In this document: one piece after another, positions 1,034 to 56,506 of the stretch
Layout: the number at the start of each line of letters is the position of its first letter
Numbering within the stretch: position 1 is the stretch's first letter
NCBI GenBank assembly: GCA_945877575.1
Contig: CAMDUE010000004.1
Span: 124,001-188,000, forward strand
Direction: 5' to 3'
DNA: 64,000 bases
Source: Chitinophaga pinensis
GTDB lineage: Bacteria > Bacteroidota > Bacteroidia > NS11-12g > UBA955
Translations under genes and position numbers: made by a program
Notes under the pieces: generated by a model
What the model saw: the letters and a program-made list of their open reading frames with translations, nothing else
What the model was told of the DNA's origin: nothing
Databases searched by the model: none

Positions 1034-1876
1034 ATGTATTTCGCAGTAAAAAATACCTTTAAACATCTTCGAAGATTAGCTGTTGCTGGTCTTCTTTCCT
1101 TTGGATTTGTATGGCTCGCAGGGTGCGAACTTTATTCCCAATCTATGGAGAATTCTGCCGGTGATAATTATTTCTCAGATATGATTGTTACTCGTTTGGT
1201 TCATACTGTTCAAGACGCAATTGTGGCTCATGATAGTGGTATGAATATGGGACATGCAGCTGTAATGACCTTTTCGAGTGTACCTGGTGAAAAGAAGATG
1301 GAAATGAGGTATGGCGTAGATTATGTGACTGATTATGACGGATTTGAACGGAAGGGTACGGTTACAACCACTTGGGATAGAAGCTTTTTTATTCCAGGTT
1401 CAACCATGCATATTGTGATGGAAAATGAGCACGGTACCAACGGGTGGGCAACAAAAGGTTTTATTGATGTAACCAATTGGGGATTGAATGAATGGGATCA
1501 GCCCATGTACGAGGTTAGGTGCAGTTTAGAGTTGATTTCTCCTGCCTACAACTGGGAATGGACCAACGAATATATTAGGGTTAAGATTTCTCGTGATTCC
1601 ACCCCTCAATCAACGGATGATTTATGGAGTGTTACAGGTACTGCATACGCTAGAAATAGACAGGGTAGATATTACAACGCCTTAATCAAGGATTCATTGT
1701 ATTACAGTCCGAGGTGCAAATACGGATACACCCGGGGCAAGGTAGACATACAACATGTTGATGCTACTCAAAGGTTATTCGTAGTATACGGAGAAGGAAC
1801 GGATACGGCTTGTTCTCAATACATGACATTTGACCGCGGAAAACGCAAATTAACGGTAACAAAAAATCTCAAATAA
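1034..1876 (+). CDS. lipoprotein of unknown function
   Basis: The protein is about 280 residues. The N-terminus has basic residues (KNTFKHLRR), a hydrophobic stretch (LAVAGLLSFGFVWLAG) and a lipobox ending LAGC, so export and lipidation are expected. The mature domain is rich in beta-type sequence with many Trp, Tyr and Thr residues and has no family motif that I recognise. The frame is open 15 codons further upstream, but the TAAATTTG -7 box sits in that extension, so I place the start at this ATG. The next gene follows after 19 nt, suggesting co-transcription with the membrane protein at 1896. Confidence 0.7.
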   Translation: MYFAVKNTFKHLRRLAVAGLLSFGFVWLAGCELYSQSMENSAGDNYFSDMIVTRLVHTVQDAIVAHDSGMNMGHAAVMTFSSVPGEKKMEMRYGVDYVTDYDGFERKGTVTTTWDRSFFIPGSTMHIVMENEHGTNGWATKGFIDVTNWGLNEWDQPMYEVRCSLELISPAYNWEWTNEYIRVKISRDSTPQSTDDLWSVTGTAYARNRQGRYYNALIKDSLYYSPRCKYGYTRGKVDIQHVDATQRLFVVYGEGTDTACSQYMTFDRGKRKLTVTKNLK

Positions 1877-1895
1877 ATTTTTACATTCGAGGGCT

Positions 1896-2438
1896 ATGAA
1901 AAAAATCATTTTACCCTCGTTTGTCATTGCCCTAACCCTTTGGATGTGGCAATTTGTTTCGTTTGCTGCAGCCAATCTCCATTCCGGGGGACAGCAATAC
2001 ACGGAACATCAAGATACGATTACGGCATTTATCAATTCATTAAACCTGGCCGATGGCGAGTATTTGATTCCCCAAGTAGATCCAAAGAAACCAGACATGA
2101 AGATGGAAGATTGGAATCAGTATTACGGCAAGCCATGGATGTTTTTGAAATATTACAACAATCGTGAAGACGTCATGGGAATGAATATGATTCGCGGATT
2201 TTCAAGCAATTGGATAGCAGGATTCATCATCATTTATTTGTTAAACATGATGGGTTCAATGAGTCGGATAAAATCTATTTTGACCACTTTAGGAATGGGG
2301 CTGGTTGTATTTATTTATGTGCCCTACACCAATCATATTTGGTTCCCAGATTTCGATACAGTCATGACAATGCTTGATTGTTTAGTTCCATTTGCCTTGA
2401 TAGGAGTTTGGAACGGGTTGTTTTGGAATAAGGAATAA
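1896..2438 (+). CDS. integral membrane protein, unknown family
   Basis: A 180-residue protein with an N-terminal hydrophobic segment (IILPSFVIALTLWMWQFVSF) and three C-terminal membrane segments (about 108-118, 128-145, 158-175). A polar loop of about 80 residues separates the first segment from the others. I recognise no family. It follows the lipoprotein at 1034 by 19 nt and may be co-transcribed with it. The TAA stop is immediately followed by a heptanucleotide repeat array, which separates this gene from the convergent WG-repeat gene. Confidence 0.6.
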   Translation: MKKIILPSFVIALTLWMWQFVSFAAANLHSGGQQYTEHQDTITAFINSLNLADGEYLIPQVDPKKPDMKMEDWNQYYGKPWMFLKYYNNREDVMGMNMIRGFSSNWIAGFIIIYLLNMMGSMSRIKSILTTLGMGLVVFIYVPYTNHIWFPDFDTVMTMLDCLVPFALIGVWNGLFWNKE

Positions 2439-2634
2439 TCGGTAGTTGGTAGTTGGTAGTTGGTAGTTGGTAGTTGGTAGTCGGTAGTTGGTAGTCGGTA
2501 ATGAGCTACGGACAACGGACTCTGGACTAGAGACTAGGGCCGGGTGACGGGTGACAAGGGTCTGAAACCCGATACCCGATACCCTATACCCTATACCCGA
2601 TACCCGATACCCGATACCCAACTACCAACTATAC
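2439..2634. repeat. degenerate heptanucleotide array 1
   Basis: Twenty-eight consecutive 7-nt units run in perfect phase from the base after the upstream stop codon. Blocks change along the array: TTGGTAG/TCGGTAG, then CGGACAA, CGGACTC, TGGACTA, GAGACTA, then GTGACGG, then ATACCCG/ATACCCT, and finally ACTACCA. The last block is the reverse complement of the first, so the ends can pair into a long imperfect hairpin between two convergent genes. The array overlaps the final codons and the stop of the minus-strand gene at 2622. Because 7 is not a multiple of 3, all frames translate into heptapeptide repeats; those open frames are artefacts. Confidence 0.9.
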
Positions 2635-4967
2635 ACCTTGCCTTTTTGGTTCATCCAATAACTGCGATCTGGTTCTGAGATGAGAAGGTAATTTTGGAAC
2701 ATTTGATCTACAATTTCATTGAAATGATAATTGCTGATAATGGAGTTGCCTCCTTTTGTGACAAGTTCATAACCCCCTTCATCTTCGGAGTGGGGGGATT
2801 GAACTATCCAAATTCCTGGAAATTGGGAGGATTCAATTTGGAGGTAATCATCAGGTAGAATTGTGTTGCCTTTGAGGTCAATAAGTCCCATAAAACCATC
2901 AATGGAATTGGTCAGTAGATACTGCAAATTATCAGATCTTGAAATGCTAAAATGGGGGGTGGGGTGCACCAGTTTTTCAGTGATGATGTTCAACAAGTGC
3001 GTTCGTGAAACAGTGCTGTCTTTTTTGAGTTTAAAGGTTGTATCTGTGGTAAATCCAATTAGGCTATCGTTCAGGATGGCAATTGATTGGGCCGTTGCTT
3101 TGCTAAGTTCCCAATTGGAAGGATTAAGCCATTTTTGTCCCCAGGAAGCAGAATTTCCGCGTTTATTGTTGGACGTGTTGATTTTGACTGAAGTGGTAAA
3201 TATTTTATTATCTACCGTTTCAAATTGTATTTTTTTGTGAACTTTTATGGACTGAAAGTCTTTGTTGTAGATGGTTGTTTCGGCTTTATCATTGATGCAG
3301 AAATACACTTGACCGTTTGATTGGATCCAGAGTGGTTCTTTTTTCAATCCCACGGCTATGATGGAAAGTGCTGAATCGGTAAATTTGGCAATATTTTGTT
3401 TGTTTACCCAATAAAAACCGGGTACAAATTGAGTACAAGACTGAAAGGTGTCGGAAATAGTTTTAAAATTTGAATCAAGAAAAAAGTGGTTCGTGCCTTT
3501 TTGAACCAAGATTCGTGTTTTTGGGATATTCCAAAGATCAACGGGAGATTGCAAGCTGTATTCGTTGAGTTCAGAAATATCATCAAATTCAAATGGAGTG
3601 AGAATCTTGCCTTGTTTATTGTAGATGGCCCAATGTGTTCCATTGAATAGGGCTCCTAAATTAGATGAAGAATCAAAGTAAATTTTTGGGAATTTGCACG
3701 GTAAAAGTTCCTTTCCAGTGGAGTTTAATAGGCCATATCGTTCTGAATTAATAACAAATGCTAAGTTCTTTTGGATTTGCAAAGGAAGATCGCTGTATTT
3801 GTTGTTGGAGATAGGGGTTCCGTCTTTTTCTATGTAATAATATTCTGGGTTGTCGAACAAATCATATTTCATGACTAAGGCGCACTCGGGTATTAGGTGC
3901 GCACCATTAGAAAACCATTGGGTATGATATTTTTTCGCAAATGGAAAGGCGAAGTCGTATGTGGAATCAGTCCATTTCTCTAAAGTAATGGAATCTACAA
4001 AGGCAAATTTGCCGCGTTTATTGTAGTAGGGTACAGGGGTAATTTTGAGATACCTGAGCAAATAGGATGCTGTTTTTTTGTGTTTTCCGAAGGGATATTT
4101 ATTCAGGTAATTTGAATATGCTTGGGTAGAGTTTATTTGTTTGCTTTGGATAAAGGCTAGATTATCGGCTAGTGATAATGCTTGTTTCTGTTGGGGCGCT
4201 TTCGGATAATCATCAATGTATTTCAAATAAGCATCTTCGGTATTTTGATATTCTGCCTCATTGAATGCCATTTTGTACAAGGAGTCTGTTGCTTGATTGT
4301 ATAGGCTCAATAAATGTGTTGGATAAGCAGAACTATCGGGCATGGCTCTCCAAATCAAAGTATATTTTTGGAGATCTGAGATTTTATTGGTTGATAGCGC
4401 TGTTTTAAATGCAATGGTATCATTTAAAGACGACAAACAATAGATGATGTGGGGTAAGGAAATTTTTGTGTTAATGTTTCCATTTTTGGGGAAATGTTTT
4501 TCTAAAGTGGCTTGTTCGTTTTGGAAGAATTTCAGCAATTCGAGATTTTGATTGGGATCTGAATTGGAGCGCTCTAAGTTGTATTTGTCGTAGAGGAGTT
4601 TGCGGTAATACAGGTTTAAATAGGTTTCATCAAAATAATACCATTGAAGAAATTCTTGTTTTTTCTCAGGATTTATCAAATAAGTTGGAGCTGTTATAGA
4701 AGCATTTCTAGAGAAGAAAAGTGCCTGATCTAGCTGTTGGTGATGGGTGGATAATCTTGATAACGAGTGCCAATAAATTGGATTGGATGTGTCAGCCGTT
4801 TTAGATCGTTTAATCAGTTTTTTTTCGGCCTTTAAAAATTGACTATCAACTATGTTTCTATGAATTCGGTATTGAGAGTTTAGCCAAGGTTTAGGTGATT
4901 GCGCATTCAGAGCGCTAATATTAATCAAGCAGAGTAAAATAAGATGAAACCCAACTCTCAAATTCAT
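2622..4967 (-). CDS. large secreted WG-repeat protein
   Basis: About 780 residues with an N-terminal signal peptide (hydrophobic run ending LNAQ). The N-terminal third looks helical (TPR-like). From about residue 310 onward there are several WG/KWG-type repeats, for example 'GKFAFVDS', 'YGLLNSTGKELLP', 'WAIYNKQGKILTPFEFD' and 'MGLIDLKGNTILPDDY', which typically form beta-propeller-like modules. A TATATTTG -7 box at 4983-4990 overlaps the upstream in-frame ATG at 4985, so the start MNLRVGF is preferred. The last four codons (Tyr-Ser-Trp-stop) lie within the heptanucleotide array, so the C-terminus has been set by the repeat. Function unknown. Confidence 0.7.
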   Translation of the reverse strand: MNLRVGFHLILLCLINISALNAQSPKPWLNSQYRIHRNIVDSQFLKAEKKLIKRSKTADTSNPIYWHSLSRLSTHHQQLDQALFFSRNASITAPTYLINPEKKQEFLQWYYFDETYLNLYYRKLLYDKYNLERSNSDPNQNLELLKFFQNEQATLEKHFPKNGNINTKISLPHIIYCLSSLNDTIAFKTALSTNKISDLQKYTLIWRAMPDSSAYPTHLLSLYNQATDSLYKMAFNEAEYQNTEDAYLKYIDDYPKAPQQKQALSLADNLAFIQSKQINSTQAYSNYLNKYPFGKHKKTASYLLRYLKITPVPYYNKRGKFAFVDSITLEKWTDSTYDFAFPFAKKYHTQWFSNGAHLIPECALVMKYDLFDNPEYYYIEKDGTPISNNKYSDLPLQIQKNLAFVINSERYGLLNSTGKELLPCKFPKIYFDSSSNLGALFNGTHWAIYNKQGKILTPFEFDDISELNEYSLQSPVDLWNIPKTRILVQKGTNHFFLDSNFKTISDTFQSCTQFVPGFYWVNKQNIAKFTDSALSIIAVGLKKEPLWIQSNGQVYFCINDKAETTIYNKDFQSIKVHKKIQFETVDNKIFTTSVKINTSNNKRGNSASWGQKWLNPSNWELSKATAQSIAILNDSLIGFTTDTTFKLKKDSTVSRTHLLNIITEKLVHPTPHFSISRSDNLQYLLTNSIDGFMGLIDLKGNTILPDDYLQIESSQFPGIWIVQSPHSEDEGGYELVTKGGNSIISNYHFNEIVDQMFQNYLLISEPDRSYWMNQKGKVYSW

Positions 4968-4982
4968 AGGTGTATATAACTT

Positions 4983-4990
4983 CAAATATA
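4983..4990 (-). promoter_or_regulatory. -7 box TATATTTG
   Basis: An exact TAnnTTTG match on the minus strand, 15 nt upstream of the start codon at 4967 of the WG-repeat gene. It overlaps an alternative in-frame ATG, which is therefore unlikely to be used. Confidence 0.55.
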
Positions 4991-15106: not shown

Positions 15107-15112
15107 AGTTAG

Positions 15113-15322
15113 TCGATGGTCGATGGTACATGGTAGTTGGTCTGTGGTCGATGGTCGGTGGTCGGTGGTCGATGGTCGGTGGTCGATGGTCTGAAGTCGG
15201 TGGTCGGTGGTCCGAAGTCGATGGTCGGTGGTCGATGGTCCGAAGTCTGTGGTCTAACTCCCGAACCCCGAAACCCGGCACCATCTACCCTCTACCCTCT
15301 ACCAGCTACCAGCTACTAGTTG
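15113..15322. repeat. degenerate heptanucleotide array 2
   Basis: Thirty 7-nt units in uninterrupted phase. The left two thirds are TCGATGG, TCGGTGG, TCTGTGG and TCTGAAG/TCCGAAG variants; the right third changes to CCCGAAC, CCCGAAA, CCCTCTA and CCAGCTA. The right-end units are near reverse complements of TAG-NNGG units, so the array is again G-rich on the left and C-rich on the right. It lies between two co-directional genes and begins 7 nt after the stop of the ribbon-helix-helix gene. Long open frames through it on both strands encode only heptapeptide repeats. Confidence 0.9.
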
Positions 15323-23112: not shown

Positions 23113-23120
23113 TTAATATA

Positions 23121-23212
23121 ATTTGTAACAAAGCGAACCCAAATTTGGCAATTATTCGTAACAAAGCGAATCCAATTTTGGCAATAATTTGTAATAAAGC
23201 GAATGCAATCCT
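23121..23212. repeat. 33-bp tandem repeat, 2.8 copies
   Basis: Units begin at 23121, 23154 and 23187 (the last partial). Each has GTAACAAAGCGAA (third copy GTAATAAAGCGAA) followed in the first two by CCAAATTTGG or CCAATTTTGG. The first of these is a perfect 10-bp palindrome. The unit length is a multiple of 3, so a minus-strand frame reads as an 11-residue repeat (FALLQIIAKIG). Its place directly behind the ATPase promoter suggests a set of operator sites rather than coding sequence. Confidence 0.75.
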
Positions 23213-26118: not shown

Positions 26119-26242
26119 TGAAGTTTTACTTTTTGCGTCTTATCTTGCAATTAATTTTTAGCAGGATGATAAAAAACTTTTGAAGTTTTACTTTTTGCGT
26201 CTTATCTTACAATTAATTTTTAGCAGGATGATAAAAAACTTT
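26119..26242. repeat. 62-bp tandem duplication
   Basis: Two adjacent 62-bp copies (26119-26180 and 26181-26242) differ at a single base (TATCTTGC versus TATCTTAC). Each copy includes the presumed promoter region, the leader and the first codons ATG ATA AAA AAC of the SGNH protein gene. The upstream copy's ATG therefore starts a 5-codon frame that ends at TGA. It is a recent duplication, since it is almost perfect. Confidence 0.85.
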
Positions 26243-29200
26243 TTCAATCAAAACAGAAATTTCTCGTTGCTTTTGATGGGCCTTTTGCTCGTTTTTCCAG
26301 CCATTGCTCAGCCACCAGCGGGCGCCGTGGCGGCAAAACCCAATATCATTTATTATGCCGGCGGCAAGTGCGATTTTTATGATGCCAACAGCAATTTGTT
26401 GCTTTCTGTGGATGCCGCGGAAGCGGGATGGTCGGCTACCCCTGCGAAAGCTGCATGGGTAGTGGTAACCCCTACGAGTGGTGGATATTATGAATTTCCC
26501 AATTATTCGAGCAATGCATCAATTTGCAATACCCATCAATATTTACAGTCATTTTGGAATTCAGATACCATTTTCAATGAGTTGGTGCTTTTATCTGGGG
26601 TGAACAGCACGGCGAATTTGATGTTCAAAGCGAAACAAGTTCTGAAGGTGACCAATTATGATTTTTCGAAATCGTTTGTATTGAATACGGATTATTCGGT
26701 GAGTGGCAAGGTCATTACACAAAAATCAGCTGCAGTGTCTGCCACGTATGCCACCAAAGGAGGTGTTAAGGGCAATGGGCAATCGAATGGACTCATGAAT
26801 ACCAACCCCACTTCATGGACATGCGTTACCTATGTTCCGGATCGATCTGATTGGGGTGGTAATTCAATTTTTTCGTATAAGGGGGATAAGTTACCCAAGA
26901 CCATGTCTAAATTGAAGAACAAACAATCTTTGGTGATACAGGCATATGGCATGAGTATTACCGCGGGGTTGAATGTGAGTGGATTTGCAGGCGATGATAA
27001 GAATTTCAAGCCAACCAAGCCTTACATGCATAGCTATGTAGATTTATTGGGTGAAGGGTTGTTGGCTAAGTTCGGTGGAAACATCACGATGATCAATGGG
27101 TCATGTGGCGGAAAAACCGTTGCTTGGATTGATCAATATTGTAAAAGTATGGTCAACCCCAATAATCCCGATTTGGTGATTTTGGATATGGGTATGAACG
27201 ACATTTGGGGTACAACGGATGCGGCGTTTAAAACCAGTATGCAATCTTGTATCGATAAGATAAAAAAAGATTGCCCCAATGCGGAGTTTATACTGGTTGG
27301 TAATATGTTGCCCGATGTAAATTCTCAAGGTTCTCCCGCCAACGGAGACGTGCTGATGTATGGGTTTTTGTCGCAGTTAAAATCATTGGAATCAGCTGGG
27401 GTTGTTGTGATGGATATGACAACAATGAGTGATAGTATCTATCGTAGAAAGGGTGCCAAACACTGTACTTCGAATTCTTTGCATCCGAATGATTATTTGG
27501 CCAGGTGGTATGCTCAAGGTTTGTTGGAGGTGTTCAATGATGGTTCATCACCTAGCCCCAATTCGAGTAAGACCTATTATGTAAACAGCACAGGCAATAA
27601 CACCGATGGTTTGACATTGGCCACAGCATGGACGTCTCTTGCAAAAGTCAATGCACAGGTATTTCAACCCGGCGATAGAGTTTTGTTCGAAGGTGGCAAG
27701 ACATTTACGGGTAATATAGAATTGGATGCCTTGGATGGTAATATTGCCCTGAAGCCCATCGTGTTCTCTACTTATGGGTCTGGTAGAGCGACTATTAATA
27801 CCACGGTTACGAATAAATGTGGTTTCAAAGCCACCAATTTACAAGGAGTGCATATCAGCAATTTGGTGTTTAAGGGTCCTGGAAATGGCACGCAAAAGGA
27901 CATAGATGGGGTGTTGTTTTTTACGGATAAAACGGCTGGTTATTTATCGAATATCGACCTAACAAATGTGGAGGTTGCAGGGTTTGGCTACTGTGGAATA
28001 CGTTTTTATTCTAGTTGGTCTGCCACGGTGAAGGCAGGTTACCGCGGGGTGCGTATCGATAGTTGCTCGGTGCATGACTGTAGGGAAAATGGCATTGTTT
28101 CATTTGCTTATGATGATCAAACGACCAATTTTTATCACCACAGGGATTTTCAAATTCGCAATACCGAAGTATATAATATTACAGGCTATGCTGCTGCGAG
28201 TCACAAAGGCAGTGGTATTGTGCTTTCTCAAATTGATTATTCACTCATTGAGCGATGCGTTGCCTACAATACAGGTACACTGAATTCAGCTTGCGGTGGA
28301 CCGGGAGGCATTTGGGTTTGGTCTGCCGATAACATAACCATACAGTATTGCGAATCTCACCACAATTCCTCTGGGACATCAACTGGTTGCGATGGCTTGG
28401 GTTTTGATTTGGATGGTGGCGTAACCAATTCGGTTGTTCAATATTGTTACTCCCATGATAACGACGGCGCCGGCTATTTGTTGGGTAATTTCACAGGAGC
28501 TCGCGCTTGGGGTAGCAATACGGTGCGATACAATATTAGCATCAATGATGCCCGCACGAATAACAGTGCGGTGACTCTATTTACTGCCCCAAATACCACC
28601 TGGAACGGATTGAATTTTTACAACAATACGGTGTACCTGAGTGGTTCAACCAAGAACAAATACACTACATTCGGTGCATTTCAAATGACGGATTATGGAA
28701 CCAATATGTCGGGGGTGAAATGTTATAACAACATATTTCAGGTATCTGGATCAGGTAATGCCGGCCCGCTTTCATTGGTTCATATTCCTGCCACCTTTGT
28801 GTCGCAAAATCCCTTGCTAATGGGAAATTTGTATTGGAGTTCTGGTGGTGCCTTTAAAATTACCTATGGCAATGCATACAGTAGTTTGTCGGCATTTCGT
28901 TCTACCGGCAACGAAAACTTAAATGGGAATAATGTGGGTGTGGAAGCCGATCCCTTATTGACGGGCATTGCCAATGCGGCGTCATTGTTGTATCCCAAGG
29001 ACAACAATTCATTGAGTCAATTTCAATTGGTTTCGAGTTCTCCCGCAAAAGATGCTGGGCTTGATTTATCAAAGGAAATGGGCCTTTCCGCGGGTGCCCG
29101 CGATTTTTGGGGTGGTTCAATACCCACCGGTACTAAATATGATATTGGTGCGCACGAATATGGCGGCGTAGTTTTATCTGTGGCAGATGGTCTCAAGAAG

Positions 29201-29720: not shown

Positions 29721-29734
29721 TAGAGTGTTTTTGG

Positions 29735-29752
29735 AGTGGAGTTGGGGGGAAT
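29735..29752. repeat. attR-like 18 bp within tmRNA 3' end
   Basis: The second copy of AGTGGAGTTGGGGGGAAT. It belongs to the intact tmRNA and would be the functional side of an integration event, keeping the RNA gene complete. Confidence 0.65.
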
Positions 29753-30109
29753 CGAACCCCCGTCCGGAGATGCGAAAGCTGGCGCTTTCTACAGGTTTAG
29801 AACCGGATTGATTTTCGGGTTATCTTAGGCTCCGTTCTTGCCACAGGGTAACCTTAGCGAACTTTATAATGCTTAAGGCCATTCGCAATTCCTTGTGCAT
29901 ACCCGTGCAGGTCGATTGCCTCTGATGAACCTCGGCACGAGTCAAGAAGTTCGAGACAAATGGCAATGTGCTAATCGCTCGGATTAAGCAGCCATGGCGT
30001 AGTTATTTTCGCCTCTTAATGGTTTGAAAGTTCTGATTTCGGTGCAACACTTACAACGCACCACCTGCTTACACCGCGTTCAATCATCCCGTCAATTCCG
30101 ATCAACCCC
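29737..30109 (-). ncRNA. ssrA: transfer-messenger RNA (tmRNA)
   Basis: Read on the minus strand, the RNA is 373 nt. Its 5' end GGGGTTG pairs with the 3' end CAACTCC (one G-U), followed by discriminator A with no encoded CCA. The T arm is GGGGG-TTCGATT-CCCCC. The resume frame at 30013 down to 29984 reads GGC GAA AAT AAC TAC GCC ATG GCT GCT TAA, giving the tag GENNYAMAA, which ends in the AA degradation signal. tmRNA with SmpB rescues stalled ribosomes and marks the incomplete protein for proteolysis. A terminator follows. The 3' end is duplicated at 25991. Confidence 0.95.
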
Positions 30110-46307: not shown

Positions 46308-46352
46308 ATCTCGGTATTTTAGCACTCGAGATGTCACAGACAACTGTGGTCA

Positions 46353-46424
46353 TTTCCCTTCGCAGGCATTATCCTGAGCAGGTTAGCGGGTATAATCTCA
46401 GCGCTCCATAGAGGCACCCCGAAT
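46353..46424 (-). promoter_or_regulatory. TPP (thi-box) riboswitch
   Basis: On the minus strand the conserved TPP-aptamer blocks occur in order: CGGGGTGCC, a short variable stem, GCTGAGA, TATACCCG, ACCTG, GGATAATGCC and TGCGAAGGGAA. This is the full thi-box pattern with P1 to P5 pairing. It lies between a TATATTCG -7-like box and the TonB receptor start (46307), leaving about 45 nt of expression platform. With TPP bound it should reduce receptor synthesis. Confidence 0.93.
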
Positions 46425-46430
46425 GCTCTG

Positions 46431-46438
46431 CGAATATA
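46431..46438 (-). promoter_or_regulatory. -7-like box TATATTCG for the TPP leader
   Basis: One mismatch to TAnnTTTG on the minus strand, 6 nt before the aptamer starts. It lies one base from the plus-strand box at 46440, so the two divergent promoters are almost back to back. Confidence 0.5.
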
Positions 46439-46451: not shown

Positions 46452-47477
46452 ATGTTTAATCTTAGAAATTCGAAGCAATTTTATTCCGGCTCATGGGAGT
46501 GGGCTGAGGTTTCTTTTCGGGGGATAAAATATCGGTTTAGAATCCAAAGAGACGACCTGATTGACCCGATTGTTACAGGAAATAAACTTCGGAAACTTTG
46601 GGGTTATGATCAAAAAAGTGGTTGGATCAGACATAACGGTATTTTAACTGTTGGTGGCGCTTACAGCAACCATTTGGTGGCTGTAGCAGCGTTCTATTCA
46701 GATCCACGCAGACGTGTTGTGGGTATTGTAAGAGGTGAACCCAACAGTGACAGCAAACATTTACAAATGTGCCGCGATTACGGCATGGAATTGCATTTCA
46801 TTAGCAGAGCTGATTACAAGCTCAAATACAAATACATTTACGAAAACTTCGTCACCGAAGAGTTTTATCCCATGGTCATTCCCGAAGGCGGTAGAGGTGC
46901 TTTTGGCATGTTGGGTTTTGATTATGCCGTTGCTGGATGGGGTGATTTCGTTCCTGAAACAGTAGTACATGCATCTGCAACGGGCACAACGGCGGCGGGT
47001 TTATTCAAATATGTTCGTGAGCGTGGTTTGAAAGACACCCGAATTGAGGCAATAGCCGTTTTGAAAAACGACTTGGAACAAAAGCGTAACATTCAAAAAA
47101 TCATGCGTGGCGACGACCCTTATGATCCAAAGGGAAATATGTACTGGGAACAGGAAAATTTAGAAAAAGAGCGCCTTGAAAGGGAGAAATACGGAGATGA
47201 GTTTTACGAGGAGAGAAAAAAGTGGGATGAGGAATATGATTCTAAATTTTTTGCAGACCGTTACAATATTGAAATTAACTCCCATTATATCTTCGGAGGG
47301 TATGCCAAATCCACTCCAGAATTGCGTGATTTTGTAACTTCCGCCAAAGCCGAAACCGGAATACACTTTGACTCTATCTACACCGGAAAGGCCCTTTATG
47401 CTATGTTGGAAGGCTTTGAATCGGGCCGTTTAAACCCTGATACCACGTTGTTTTATCATACGGGGGGTATTGGGTAG
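46452..47477 (+). CDS. PLP enzyme, ACC deaminase/D-cysteine desulfhydrase-like
   Basis: A 341-residue fold-type II PLP protein. The family's 'QRDDLIDPIVTGNKLRKLWG' carries the cofactor Lys, and 'LTVGGAYSNHLVAVAA' follows, with 'VIPEGGRGAFGMLGF' and 'HASATGTTAAGL' as further blocks. Members deaminate ACC or release sulfide from D-cysteine. Between about residues 205 and 270 there is a very charged insertion ('YWEQENLEKERLEREKYG', 'DEFYEERKKWDEEYDSKFF') absent from typical enzymes of about 300-330 residues. The stop codon TAG is formed by the first unit of heptanucleotide array 3. Confidence 0.82.
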   Translation: MFNLRNSKQFYSGSWEWAEVSFRGIKYRFRIQRDDLIDPIVTGNKLRKLWGYDQKSGWIRHNGILTVGGAYSNHLVAVAAFYSDPRRRVVGIVRGEPNSDSKHLQMCRDYGMELHFISRADYKLKYKYIYENFVTEEFYPMVIPEGGRGAFGMLGFDYAVAGWGDFVPETVVHASATGTTAAGLFKYVRERGLKDTRIEAIAVLKNDLEQKRNIQKIMRGDDPYDPKGNMYWEQENLEKERLEREKYGDEFYEERKKWDEEYDSKFFADRYNIEINSHYIFGGYAKSTPELRDFVTSAKAETGIHFDSIYTGKALYAMLEGFESGRLNPDTTLFYHTGGIG

Positions 47478-47653
47478 TTGGTAGTTGGTAAAGGGTAGTT
47501 GGTAGTTGGTAGTTGGTATAGGGTAGTTGGTAGGGGGTCGGGGGTCGGGGGTCGGGGGTCGCGAGCCGCAGATTAAAGACTACAGACTACGGACTACGGA
47601 CTACGGACCACGGAACATAGACCACAGACCTCAGACTACAGACTACGGACTAT
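47472..47653. repeat. degenerate heptanucleotide array 3
   Basis: Twenty-six 7-nt units in uninterrupted phase. The order is GGGTAGT/TGGTAGT, then GGGTCGG repeated, then AGACTAC/GGACTAC, ending GGACTAT. The left block has TAG in every frame of the plus strand, and the right block has TAG in every frame of the minus strand (TAGTCC). It lies between two convergent genes and provides the stop codons of both: TAG at 47475-47477 (+) and TAG read from 47652 to 47650 (-). Confidence 0.9.
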
Positions 47654-48162
47654 TTCATCATCGCATCAACGTTACCCGTCAAAATGAGGTGATAGCCGTT
47701 GGGGTTTTTGTCAAAGTAGACGTCAATGTGCTTACGAAATCGGCCAAAGGTGTTGGATGTTTTATAATCGGCGGTAACCCAACCGGTGTCTTTTGGTGAA
47801 ACCGGGGTTTTGGTGAAATCAGTAGCAGTGCAACTACAACCAGGGTGAAGCGCGGTAATGGTGATGGGCTTCATTGATTGGTTAACGAAAAAGAACTTTG
47901 TGGTTGCCGGCGGACCTGAAGGAACATCTTTGAAGTCGTGAATGAGTTCATTCCAAATGATGGAATCAGGAGCTGAAATGGAGTTTTGGAGGCTTGTAAG
48001 AGGATTGGGAGCTGGGTTTCCATTTTGTATAATGGCAGTATTGGTTGTCGTTGTGATTGTGGTGTTGCTCGTAGATGAGGAAGTCTCTTTATTGGAATAA
48101 GACAATTGGGTGTTGCAAGCAGATATTATCACTAAAGCTATGATCAAATACGAATATTTCAT
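47650..48162 (-). CDS. DUF1573 lipoprotein
   Basis: A 170-residue protein with a lipobox ending 'ISAC', a Ser/Thr-rich linker (about 25-45) and a DUF1573 domain. The domain's hallmark cysteine motif is present in 'TALHPGCSCTATDF', followed by 'GRFRKHIDVYFDKNPNGYHL' and 'LTGNVDA'. DUF1573 domains are Ig-like (ASH-type) and their role is unknown. Its start overlaps the upstream gene's stop by 4 nt. The final stop codon is contributed by heptanucleotide array 3. Confidence 0.82.
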   Translation of the reverse strand: MKYSYLIIALVIISACNTQLSYSNKETSSSTSNTTITTTTNTAIIQNGNPAPNPLTSLQNSISAPDSIIWNELIHDFKDVPSGPPATTKFFFVNQSMKPITITALHPGCSCTATDFTKTPVSPKDTGWVTADYKTSNTFGRFRKHIDVYFDKNPNGYHLILTGNVDAMMK

Positions 48163-55529: not shown

Positions 55530-55648
55530 TTTTTTCGGGTTTCGGGTTTCGGGTTTCGGGGGTTGCTGGTCTCTAGTCGTTGGTCGTTGGTCCACGGACT
55601 ATGGACTATAGACTATGGACCATGGACCATGGACTACAGACCATGGAC
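55530..55648. repeat. degenerate heptanucleotide array 4
   Basis: Seventeen 7-nt units in uninterrupted phase: GGGTTTC repeated, then GTTGGTC, then CACGGAC, TATGGAC, TATAGAC, CATGGAC and TACAGAC. Unlike the other arrays it lies between divergent genes, directly abutting the start codon of the hypothetical gene (-) and ending 34 nt before the -7 box of murQ (+). In this position it would form part of the upstream promoter or leader regions rather than 3' ends. Confidence 0.88.
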
Positions 55649-55696: not shown

Positions 55697-56506
55697 ATGA
55701 ATACCGAAAGTACTTCTCGACACAATGATTTGGAATTAATGGGCACTGAGGAATTGCTTCGGGGCATCAATCAGGAAGATCAAACCGTTGCCGTTGCAGT
55801 GGAATTGGCCATTTCTCAAATAACGTGTTTGGTTGATGCAGTCTATGATAAAATGAAAGTTGGAGGACGGTTATTTTATTTGGGTGCTGGTACTTCGGGA
55901 AGGTTGGGTATAGTAGATGCTTCTGAATGTCCGCCAACGTTTGGGGTAGATTTTGACCGGGTTATTGGATTGATTGCAGGCGGAGATAGGGCTATCAGGA
56001 GAGCGGTTGAAAATGCAGAAGATGATGAAAATCAAGGATTTGAAGATCTAAAAGCTTGGAACGTGAATGCAAACGATTTTGTCATTGGTATCGCGGCATC
56101 GGGAAGAACGCCTTATGTGGCTGGAGCCTTGCAAGCATGCAATGAGTTGGGTGCAGGCACTGGGTGTGTGGTGTGTAATTCAGATTCTAAGGTGGCGAAG
56201 ATTTCAATTTATCCGGTGGAGATTATTACTGGCCCTGAGTTTGTGACGGGCTCTACAAGGATGAAGGCGGGAACAGCTACCAAAATGGCATTGAACATGA
56301 TAACCACATCGGTGATGATTAAATTGGGACATGTAAAAGGCAATAAGATGGTAGATATGCAGTTGACCAATCAAAAATTGGTTGAACGCGGTACAAAGAT
56401 GATCGTGGAAGAAACGGGTCTAAAAGAAGAAAATGCTCGCAAGTTACTTTTGGAAACAGGAAGCGTGCGCAAGGCCGTTGATGTCCACCGAAAAGGTGGC
56501 AACTAA
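55697..56506 (+). CDS. murQ: N-acetylmuramic acid 6-phosphate etherase
   Basis: A 269-residue enzyme that cleaves the lactyl ether of MurNAc-6-phosphate to give GlcNAc-6-phosphate in cell-wall recycling. The SIS fold shows 'GRLFYLGAGTSGRLGIVDAS' with 'ECPPTFGVDF' immediately after (the Glu is the likely catalytic base), 'VIGLIAGGDRAIRRAVENAE', 'GIAASGRTPYVAGAL' and 'TGPEFVTGSTRMKAGTATKM'. The C-terminus is slightly shorter than in E. coli MurQ (about 298 residues). No other recycling gene is adjacent. The start is set by the -7 box. Confidence 0.92.
   Translation: MNTESTSRHNDLELMGTEELLRGINQEDQTVAVAVELAISQITCLVDAVYDKMKVGGRLFYLGAGTSGRLGIVDASECPPTFGVDFDRVIGLIAGGDRAIRRAVENAEDDENQGFEDLKAWNVNANDFVIGIAASGRTPYVAGALQACNELGAGTGCVVCNSDSKVAKISIYPVEIITGPEFVTGSTRMKAGTATKMALNMITTSVMIKLGHVKGNKMVDMQLTNQKLVERGTKMIVEETGLKEENARKLLLETGSVRKAVDVHRKGGN

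What the first reader, a model, noticed from the sequence alone, without database searches (positions are those of the whole stretch)
2439..2634. Array 1 ends mirror each other: long hairpin between convergent genes
The first units (TTGGTAG, TCGGTAG) and the last units (ATACCCA, ACTACCA) are reverse complementary, and the middle changes gradually. The RNA from either strand could fold back over up to about 190 nt. Arrays 2 and 3 also go from G-rich left units to C-rich or TAG-complement right units. A two-way terminator, an RNase-resistant 3' end, or a protein-bound cruciform are possible.
Basis: partly seen in the sequence, partly recalled or inferred. Interest (0 to 1): 0.6.

Follow-up and report, generated by a model that had tools for sequence, protein, structure and literature searches.

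The report
Dispersed seven-base repeat arrays, not terminators
The mirrored "hairpin" is one of many scattered seven-letter DNA repeat arrays in this bacterium that sit mostly at gene ends, change their wording between related species and even supply the stop signals of neighbouring genes; the hairpin itself looks like a by-product.

Summary
It is not a one-off. In 864 kb sampled of this 2.5-Mb genome I found 37 such arrays. Where both arms exist the order is G-first, C-last in 22 of 23, and in 17 of 17 in the nearest relative. An array's arms do not pair better with each other than with other arrays' arms, no U-tract follows, and arrays also lie in frame inside genes and between divergent genes. 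Five of 5 readable relatives lack the array at this site. So a selected hairpin terminator is not supported. Best reading: dispersed, fast-evolving satellite arrays. Four of seven sites compared with G054 carry arrays in both species but with different words, and adjacent genes take their stop codon from the local word (TAG 58% versus 11%; TGA 56% versus 19% in G054). Known kind (heptad intergenic repeats), new variant.

The parts
2439..2632 (.). Array 1, the finding: heptad array, G-rich left arm to about 2561, C-rich right arm from about 2562
1896..2438 (+). Left convergent gene, 180 aa, ends TAA immediately before the array
2622..4985 (-). Right convergent gene, 787 aa WG-repeat protein; TAG stop (2622-2624) and the last three residues YSW are encoded by array sequence
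15108..15321 (.). Array 2: long GGTCGAT/GGTCGGT arm, then CTACCCT/ACCAGCT arm; begins just after the TGA of a short + strand ORF and ends about 35 nt before the next + strand gene
47463..47654 (.). Array 3, convergent genes; both flanking genes end on TAG codons inside the array (47475-47477 on +, 47650-47652 on -)
55531..55637 (.). Array 4, between divergent genes upstream of murQ; the same site in relative G054 holds an array of different words
55697..56506 (+). murQ-like gene (SIS/GKRP-type domains) used to compare the array-4 site across relatives

Best explanation
Array 1 is one member of a genome-wide family of dispersed, fast-evolving satellite arrays with a 7-nt period. Shown: arrays of shared vocabulary (core NNN-RGT-N, reverse complement on the other arm) sit mainly at gene 3' ends, some inside genes in frame; where two arms exist the G-rich one comes first on either strand; sites can be shared between species while the words differ; the words supply the neighbours' stop codons. 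Inferred: each arm grows directionally, by 7-nt slippage synthesis at the 3' end of the G-rich strand, away from a coding boundary. Two such arms meeting in a gap give the mirror. Copying between arrays (gene conversion or template switching) keeps a common vocabulary and unit length in a genome. Purifying selection leaves arrays mostly where no promoter or codon is harmed. The hairpin is a by-product of using one vocabulary in two orientations.
For: Period 7 dominates in the window plus 260 kb of contig 2 (27 arrays; 0 at periods 4, 5 and 8). Polarity G-first 22:1 here and 17:0 in G054; outside convergent gaps 16:1 (my count). Sense strand G-rich after 32 of 33 and 25 of 27 adjacent stop codons. 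Empty sites: the array-1 gene pair lies 4 nt apart in G045 and 5 of 5 relatives lack array 1; 10 of 10 relatives other than G054 lack array 4; a 46-aa in-frame insertion in ComB is absent from 6 of 6 orthologs. Four of 7 sites with both flanks mapped in G054 hold arrays with other words. Stop codons follow the dialect. Own arms do not pair preferentially. GG-heptad arrays in 114 of 247 Bacteroidota genomes.
Against: Directional growth and inter-array copying are inferred; no intermediate state or within-population variation was seen. Enrichment at convergent gene ends (p 4e-8 against array-free intergenic bases) is also what a terminator would show. In about half the arrays tested (11 of 23 on +, 10 of 23 on -) the unit order folds better than shuffled orders (z below -2). 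Shared sites with different words could also be independent hits at hot spots. Some genomes hold both 7- and 8-nt arrays, so one unit length per genome is a tendency only. In 21 other genomes the stop-side polarity is weaker (9:3).
Confidence: 0.6

Rival explanations
1. One reading: the array is a selected two-way transcription terminator or 3'-end stabiliser, working through the long RNA hairpin made on either strand.
For: Array 1 folds with z -6.1 and -4.6. Arrays are enriched between convergent genes, 16 of 30 here and 11 of 25 in G054, and abut stop codons.
Against: Own-arm pairing is no better than swapped arms. No T-run follows the stem. Arrays lie in ORFs, between divergent genes, and 11-35 nt before start codons in several tandem pairs. 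Some are single-armed. Absent at the array-1 site in 5 of 5 relatives and at the array-4 site in 10 of 11.
Confidence: 0.15
2. Selected translation-stop insulators: G-rich heptads carry TAG or TGA, and because 7 is not a multiple of 3 a run of them stops all three frames from either side, protecting convergent neighbours.
For: Adjacent genes use TAG 58% versus 11% here and TGA 56% versus 19% in G054. Inward-reading G strands carry 6.8 and 7.3 stops per 100 nt against 2.9 and 3.3 on the complement; all three frames are stopped in 33 of 52 and 27 of 34 arms.
Against: Several dialects in other genomes hold no stop triplet (for example GGTTGTT, GGTGCTT, GGAAATC). 19 of 52 arms here do not stop all frames. 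Lengths of 100-340 nt exceed what stopping needs. Arrays occur inside genes.
Confidence: 0.12
3. A MITE-like or Rickettsia-palindromic-element-like mobile element with heptad inverted ends, inserted by a transposase.
For: Clean insertions, one in frame in ComB, inverted-repeat layout, dispersal through the genome.
Against: No conserved element sequence; tight lengths run from 42 to 340 nt. The genome (99.9% complete) has no Y1_Tnp match. Words at shared sites differ. Other transposase families were not searched.
Confidence: 0.1

Closest known systems
GGGAATC / GGGGA(C/T)T heptad repeats of Xanthomonas and Nostoc (PMC4692102; abstract and sections 13, 14 and 16 read)
   Same: 7-nt unit, G-rich, dispersed, mainly intergenic, few between divergent genes, G-rich strand is the coding strand just after stop codons, single or inverted pairs, mostly the same gene context in a related species with varied length and sequence; function unknown there too.
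   Different: There one consensus unit with a preference for four copies; here many words per array, median about 18 units, words that differ between species at the same site, stop codons switching with the words, whole arrays in frame inside genes.
TAACTGA heptad repeats of Beggiatoaceae, Cyanobacteria and a few Bacteroidetes (PMC4679880; abstract and passages read)
   Same: Tandem heptads, largely intergenic, reported in Bacteroidetes too.
   Different: [quoted passage not shown] here many words, long arrays, at gene 3' ends.
Rickettsia palindromic elements (PMC3767692; passages read)
   Same: Palindromic sequences of 100-150 bp found inside ORFs without destroying the frame.
   Different: RPEs are sequence families; these arrays are tandem heptads with no conserved sequence.
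REP/BIME/REPIN elements (search listings only, PMC3733652, PMC3116915; details recalled)
   Same: Dispersed extragenic palindromes near gene 3' ends.
   Different: No fixed short palindrome, tandem heptads, and no Y1_Tnp transposase in the genome.

Membership tests
G-rich heptad intergenic repeats (Rehm et al. 2015 type) | 7-nt unit in tandem, dispersed over the genome | tested here: met
   27 arrays at period 7 and none at periods 4, 5 and 8 in 324 kb; 37 in 864 kb
G-rich heptad intergenic repeats (Rehm et al. 2015 type) | G-rich strand is the sense strand next to stop codons | tested here: met
   32 of 33 here, 25 of 27 in G054
G-rich heptad intergenic repeats (Rehm et al. 2015 type) | One consensus unit, preference for four copies | tested here: not met
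   Many words per array; median tight length 128 nt, about 18 units
G-rich heptad intergenic repeats (Rehm et al. 2015 type) | G-quadruplex formation | not tested
   No CD data and no quadruplex scoring done
Intrinsic (rho-independent) terminator | G+C-rich hairpin | tested here: met
   z -6.1 on + and -4.6 on -
Intrinsic (rho-independent) terminator | U-tract right after the stem | tested here: not met
   No terminator-like site in the array; the only hit in 1800-3200 is at 3158
Intrinsic (rho-independent) terminator | Arms kept complementary to each other | tested here: not met
   Own pairs not better than swapped pairs, 20 arrays here and 12 in G054
Intrinsic (rho-independent) terminator | Ends transcripts | not testable with these tools
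   No RNA data
REP/BIME with RAYT transposase | Y1_Tnp (PF01797) transposase in the genome | tested here: not met
   0 in the own genome; 1 of 14 genus genomes (G045) has it, and that one had no hit with either array pattern
Telomerase-like or retro-generated repeats | Reverse transcriptase (PF00078) | tested here: not met
   0 in the own genome; 1 of 14 in the genus, G054
Rickettsia palindromic elements | Conserved element sequence family | tested here: not met
   Array sequences differ in word order from locus to locus
Rickettsia palindromic elements | In-frame insertion in ORFs | tested here: met
   ComB insertion of 46 aa, absent in 6 of 6 orthologs

The most novel reading that the evidence does not exclude
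A trans-acting, genome-specific process writes these arrays: it sets the unit length (7 in some Bacteroidota, 8 in others) and the words for each genome, extends the 3' end of the G-rich strand inward from both sides of a gap much as two telomere ends would be joined, and rewrites existing arrays as the words change, thereby switching the stop codons of neighbouring genes. It would do so without reverse transcriptase, Ku or Y1 transposase, none of which was found in this genome.
Probability: 0.1. Interest if true: 0.9.

Novelty: new variant of a known kind. Interest (0 to 1): 0.55.

Why it matters
Why heptad repeats are so common in bacteria, and why they are strand-polar near gene ends, is open; the Xanthomonas/Nostoc paper left function and origin unresolved. 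Here two related genomes hold arrays at the same sites with different words, and the neighbours' stop codons change with the words. That makes the turnover measurable: strains can be compared, slippage and conversion rates estimated, and directional growth tested. It also warns against reading such mirrored arrays as terminators.

Tried and rejected
Terminator: no T-run, no preferential own-arm pairing. Simple foldback copying of one arm from the other: not supported, because arms of one array pair worse than swapped arms. Telomerase-like reverse transcription, Ku end joining, RAYT mobilisation: no PF00078, PF02735 or PF01797 match in the own genome. A known structured RNA: Rfam finds only tmRNA, a tRNA and a TPP riboswitch in the window. 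Polarity as a mere result of gene direction: rejected in part, since it holds outside convergent gaps (16:1, my count). Stop-codon supply as the general cause of polarity: rejected in part, since some dialects in other genomes hold no stop.

Corrections made on the way. A first look at relatives' array-4 and array-1 sites printed the wrong side for loci in reverse orientation; it was redone. A notebook entry written before that says 11 other relatives lack array 4; the checked number is 10 of 10 besides G054. A first count of G-strand orientation in the phylum loci was wrong because those loci are in contig orientation; it was redone. Two rows of the period-7 list are runs of N and are dropped; the same runs inflate the other periods of that call. 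Sampling limits: 864 kb of 2.51 Mb of the own genome, of which L044-L050 were chosen because a GGTAGT pattern hit there; 700 kb of about 2.0 Mb of G054. Gene calls are from my own hexamer-scored ORF finder. Rows below 42% G+C were dropped from the array lists of both genomes.

Full report
What was reported.

Is it there? Yes. The array occupies 2439-2632. It is 7-nt-phased on the left (GGTAGTT, 8.6 copies) and right (ACCCGAT, 7.6 copies, then CAACTACCAACTA), with a more degenerate middle. The inverted arms and the folds are significant: 14-nt perfect and 21-nt 86% arms; RNA MFE -88.1 and -79.7 kcal/mol, z -6.11 and -4.61 against dinucleotide shuffles. With the order of heptads shuffled instead, z is -4.79 and -4.38 (stretch 2417-2646). 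The structure is branched and broken by internal loops. The left gene stops directly before the array. The right gene's last residues, YSW, and its TAG stop are array sequence.

It is one of many. A period-7 detector found 27 arrays in the window plus 260 kb of contig 2, against 0 at periods 4, 5 and 8, 3 at period 6, and up to 18 at period 12 (period 14 is a harmonic). In 864 kb of this genome there are 37. They are uneven: 18 in 260 kb of contig 2, none between 105 and 365 kb of contig 1. Units share a core, NNN-RGT-N on the left and its reverse complement on the right; this is read by eye from the list. The detector asks for 62% identity between bases 7 nt apart over 42 nt and at least 42% G+C.

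Polarity. Two-armed arrays are G-first in 22 and C-first in 1 among 37 arrays here; 17 and 0 among 27 in G054. The remaining arrays are single-armed by the skew criterion. Leaving out convergent gaps, the count is 16 to 1 (my count). Beside stop codons the sense strand is G-rich in 32 of 33 and 25 of 27 cases. In 21 loci from other Bacteroidota genomes the same comparison gives 9 to 3.

Is the hairpin selected? For 20 two-armed arrays here and 12 in G054 I compared the folding energy of each left arm with its own and with every other right arm. Own pairs average -13.5 and swapped pairs -19.3 kcal/mol (inner 56 nt); 98% of random pairings were at least as strong. The outer parts, the other strand and G054 agree in direction. 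So complementarity is generic: one vocabulary used in two orientations. Weaker own pairing may reflect loss of long perfect palindromes, an inference. Against this, 11 of 23 arrays on + and 10 of 23 on - fold better than their own unit-order shuffles by more than 2 sd. The G-first order by itself may give this, but it would also suit a functional stem.

Where they sit. 16 of 30 intergenic arrays are between convergent genes, which make up 112 of 708 pairs and 12% of array-free intergenic bases (p 4e-8); in G054 11 of 25 against 82 of 568 pairs. Nine lie in tandem gaps, mostly against the upstream stop codon, some 11-35 nt before the next start codon; five are between divergent genes; seven lie within genes. 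The genes include an M16 peptidase, an FtsX-type permease, ComB, an ATP-dependent DNA ligase and an M1 peptidase; AroQ ends in an array. In ComB a whole two-armed array adds 46 residues in frame, absent from 6 of 6 orthologs of the genus.

Relatives. At array 1, the same convergent pair in G045 has 4 nt between the stop codons. None of 5 relatives with readable sequence past the left gene has an array there; a sixth locus ends too early. Upstream of murQ, G054 has an array and 10 of 10 other relatives do not, one of them with only 215 nt to look at. Of 37 own arrays, 7 had both flanks mapped in the 700 kb of G054: 4 sites hold arrays in both with different words, 2 are plain short gaps in G054, and 1 is rearranged. 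G054 uses GGTGATC, GGCTGTC and GACCAAA words, with a few arrays in this genome's words. G054's contig 4 has the length, 197,779, of JAMNXP010000003.1, a Bacteroidia MAG with the same 84% murQ match, so it is probably that genome.

Stop codons follow the words. Genes that end at an array use TAG in 19 of 33 cases against 73 of 683 other genes (p 4e-10). In G054, with TGA-bearing words, it is TGA in 15 of 27 against 104 of 545 (p 5e-5). At one shared site the gene ends ...GAATTAG here and ...GAATTGA in G054.

Wider spread. A GG-every-7 pattern (eight times) hits 114 of 247 Bacteroidota genomes, 66 of 122 genera, with varied vocabularies. The control GG-every-8 hits 50 of 247. Many genomes are nearly exclusive: this one 753 against 0, G275 627 against 1, G274 0 against 70, G276 10 against 199. 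Others, such as G223, G263 and G291, hold both. These are pattern positions, not arrays. In the 80 murQ loci I count 8 period-7 arrays (one of them G054's), after dropping two runs of N.

How it probably works. Shown: dispersal, polarity, word sharing within a genome, different words at shared sites, stop-codon capture, insertion in genes, no preference of own arms. Inferred: slippage synthesis with a 7-nt step extending the 3' end of the G strand inward, copying between arrays, and selection that spares coding and promoter sequence. Enzymes looked for and not found in this genome: reverse transcriptase, Ku, Y1 transposase.

Compared with what is known. Heptads are described as the most abundant class of such repeats in most genomes studied, with a polymerase-slippage proposal (as told in PMC4679880 and PMC4692102; the original paper was not read). 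Xanthomonas and Nostoc G-rich heptads show the same stop-side polarity and same-site variation (PMC4692102 sections 13, 14, 16). A satellite survey mentions heptamer-derived families; the word start Bacteroid does not occur in its text (PMC6749651). My searches for heptad repeats in Bacteroidetes listed only the TAACTGA paper and the Xanthomonas/Nostoc paper as close. That covers only the open-licence library, so novelty in print is not established.

Verdict. Observation confirmed; hairpin-as-device not supported; a new variant of a known kind, with word turnover and stop-codon switching as the interesting part.

Noticed in passing
other Bacteroidota genomes, e.g. G274, G220, G276: Some genomes carry octad (8-nt) arrays of mixed words and few or no heptads, while this genome has no octad hit; unit length looks genome-specific, with exceptions.
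   Followed up: partly
L070 (G054 contig 3:45001-65000) 10059-11154 and L072 (G054 contig 1:1-20000) 8451-8642: A few arrays of G054 use this genome's vocabulary (GGTACCT, GGTAGAT, GACTACG) beside its own dialect.
   Followed up: no
L049 12056-12223 and 15136-15291: Two arrays 3 kb apart are near-identical including flanks, apparently a local duplication, the only clear copy pair seen.
   Followed up: no
L078-L090 (G000 contig 1, 105-365 kb): No arrays in 260 kb, while contig 2 has 18 in the same length; the uneven spread is unexplained.
   Followed up: no
26119-26243: Two tandem copies of a 62-bp unit, 98% alike.
   Followed up: no
23118-23209: 33-bp unit, 2.8 tandem copies, between two - strand ORFs.
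   Followed up: no
29734-30109, 46338-46431, 815-886: tmRNA, TPP riboswitch and a tRNA, all on the - strand.
   Followed up: no
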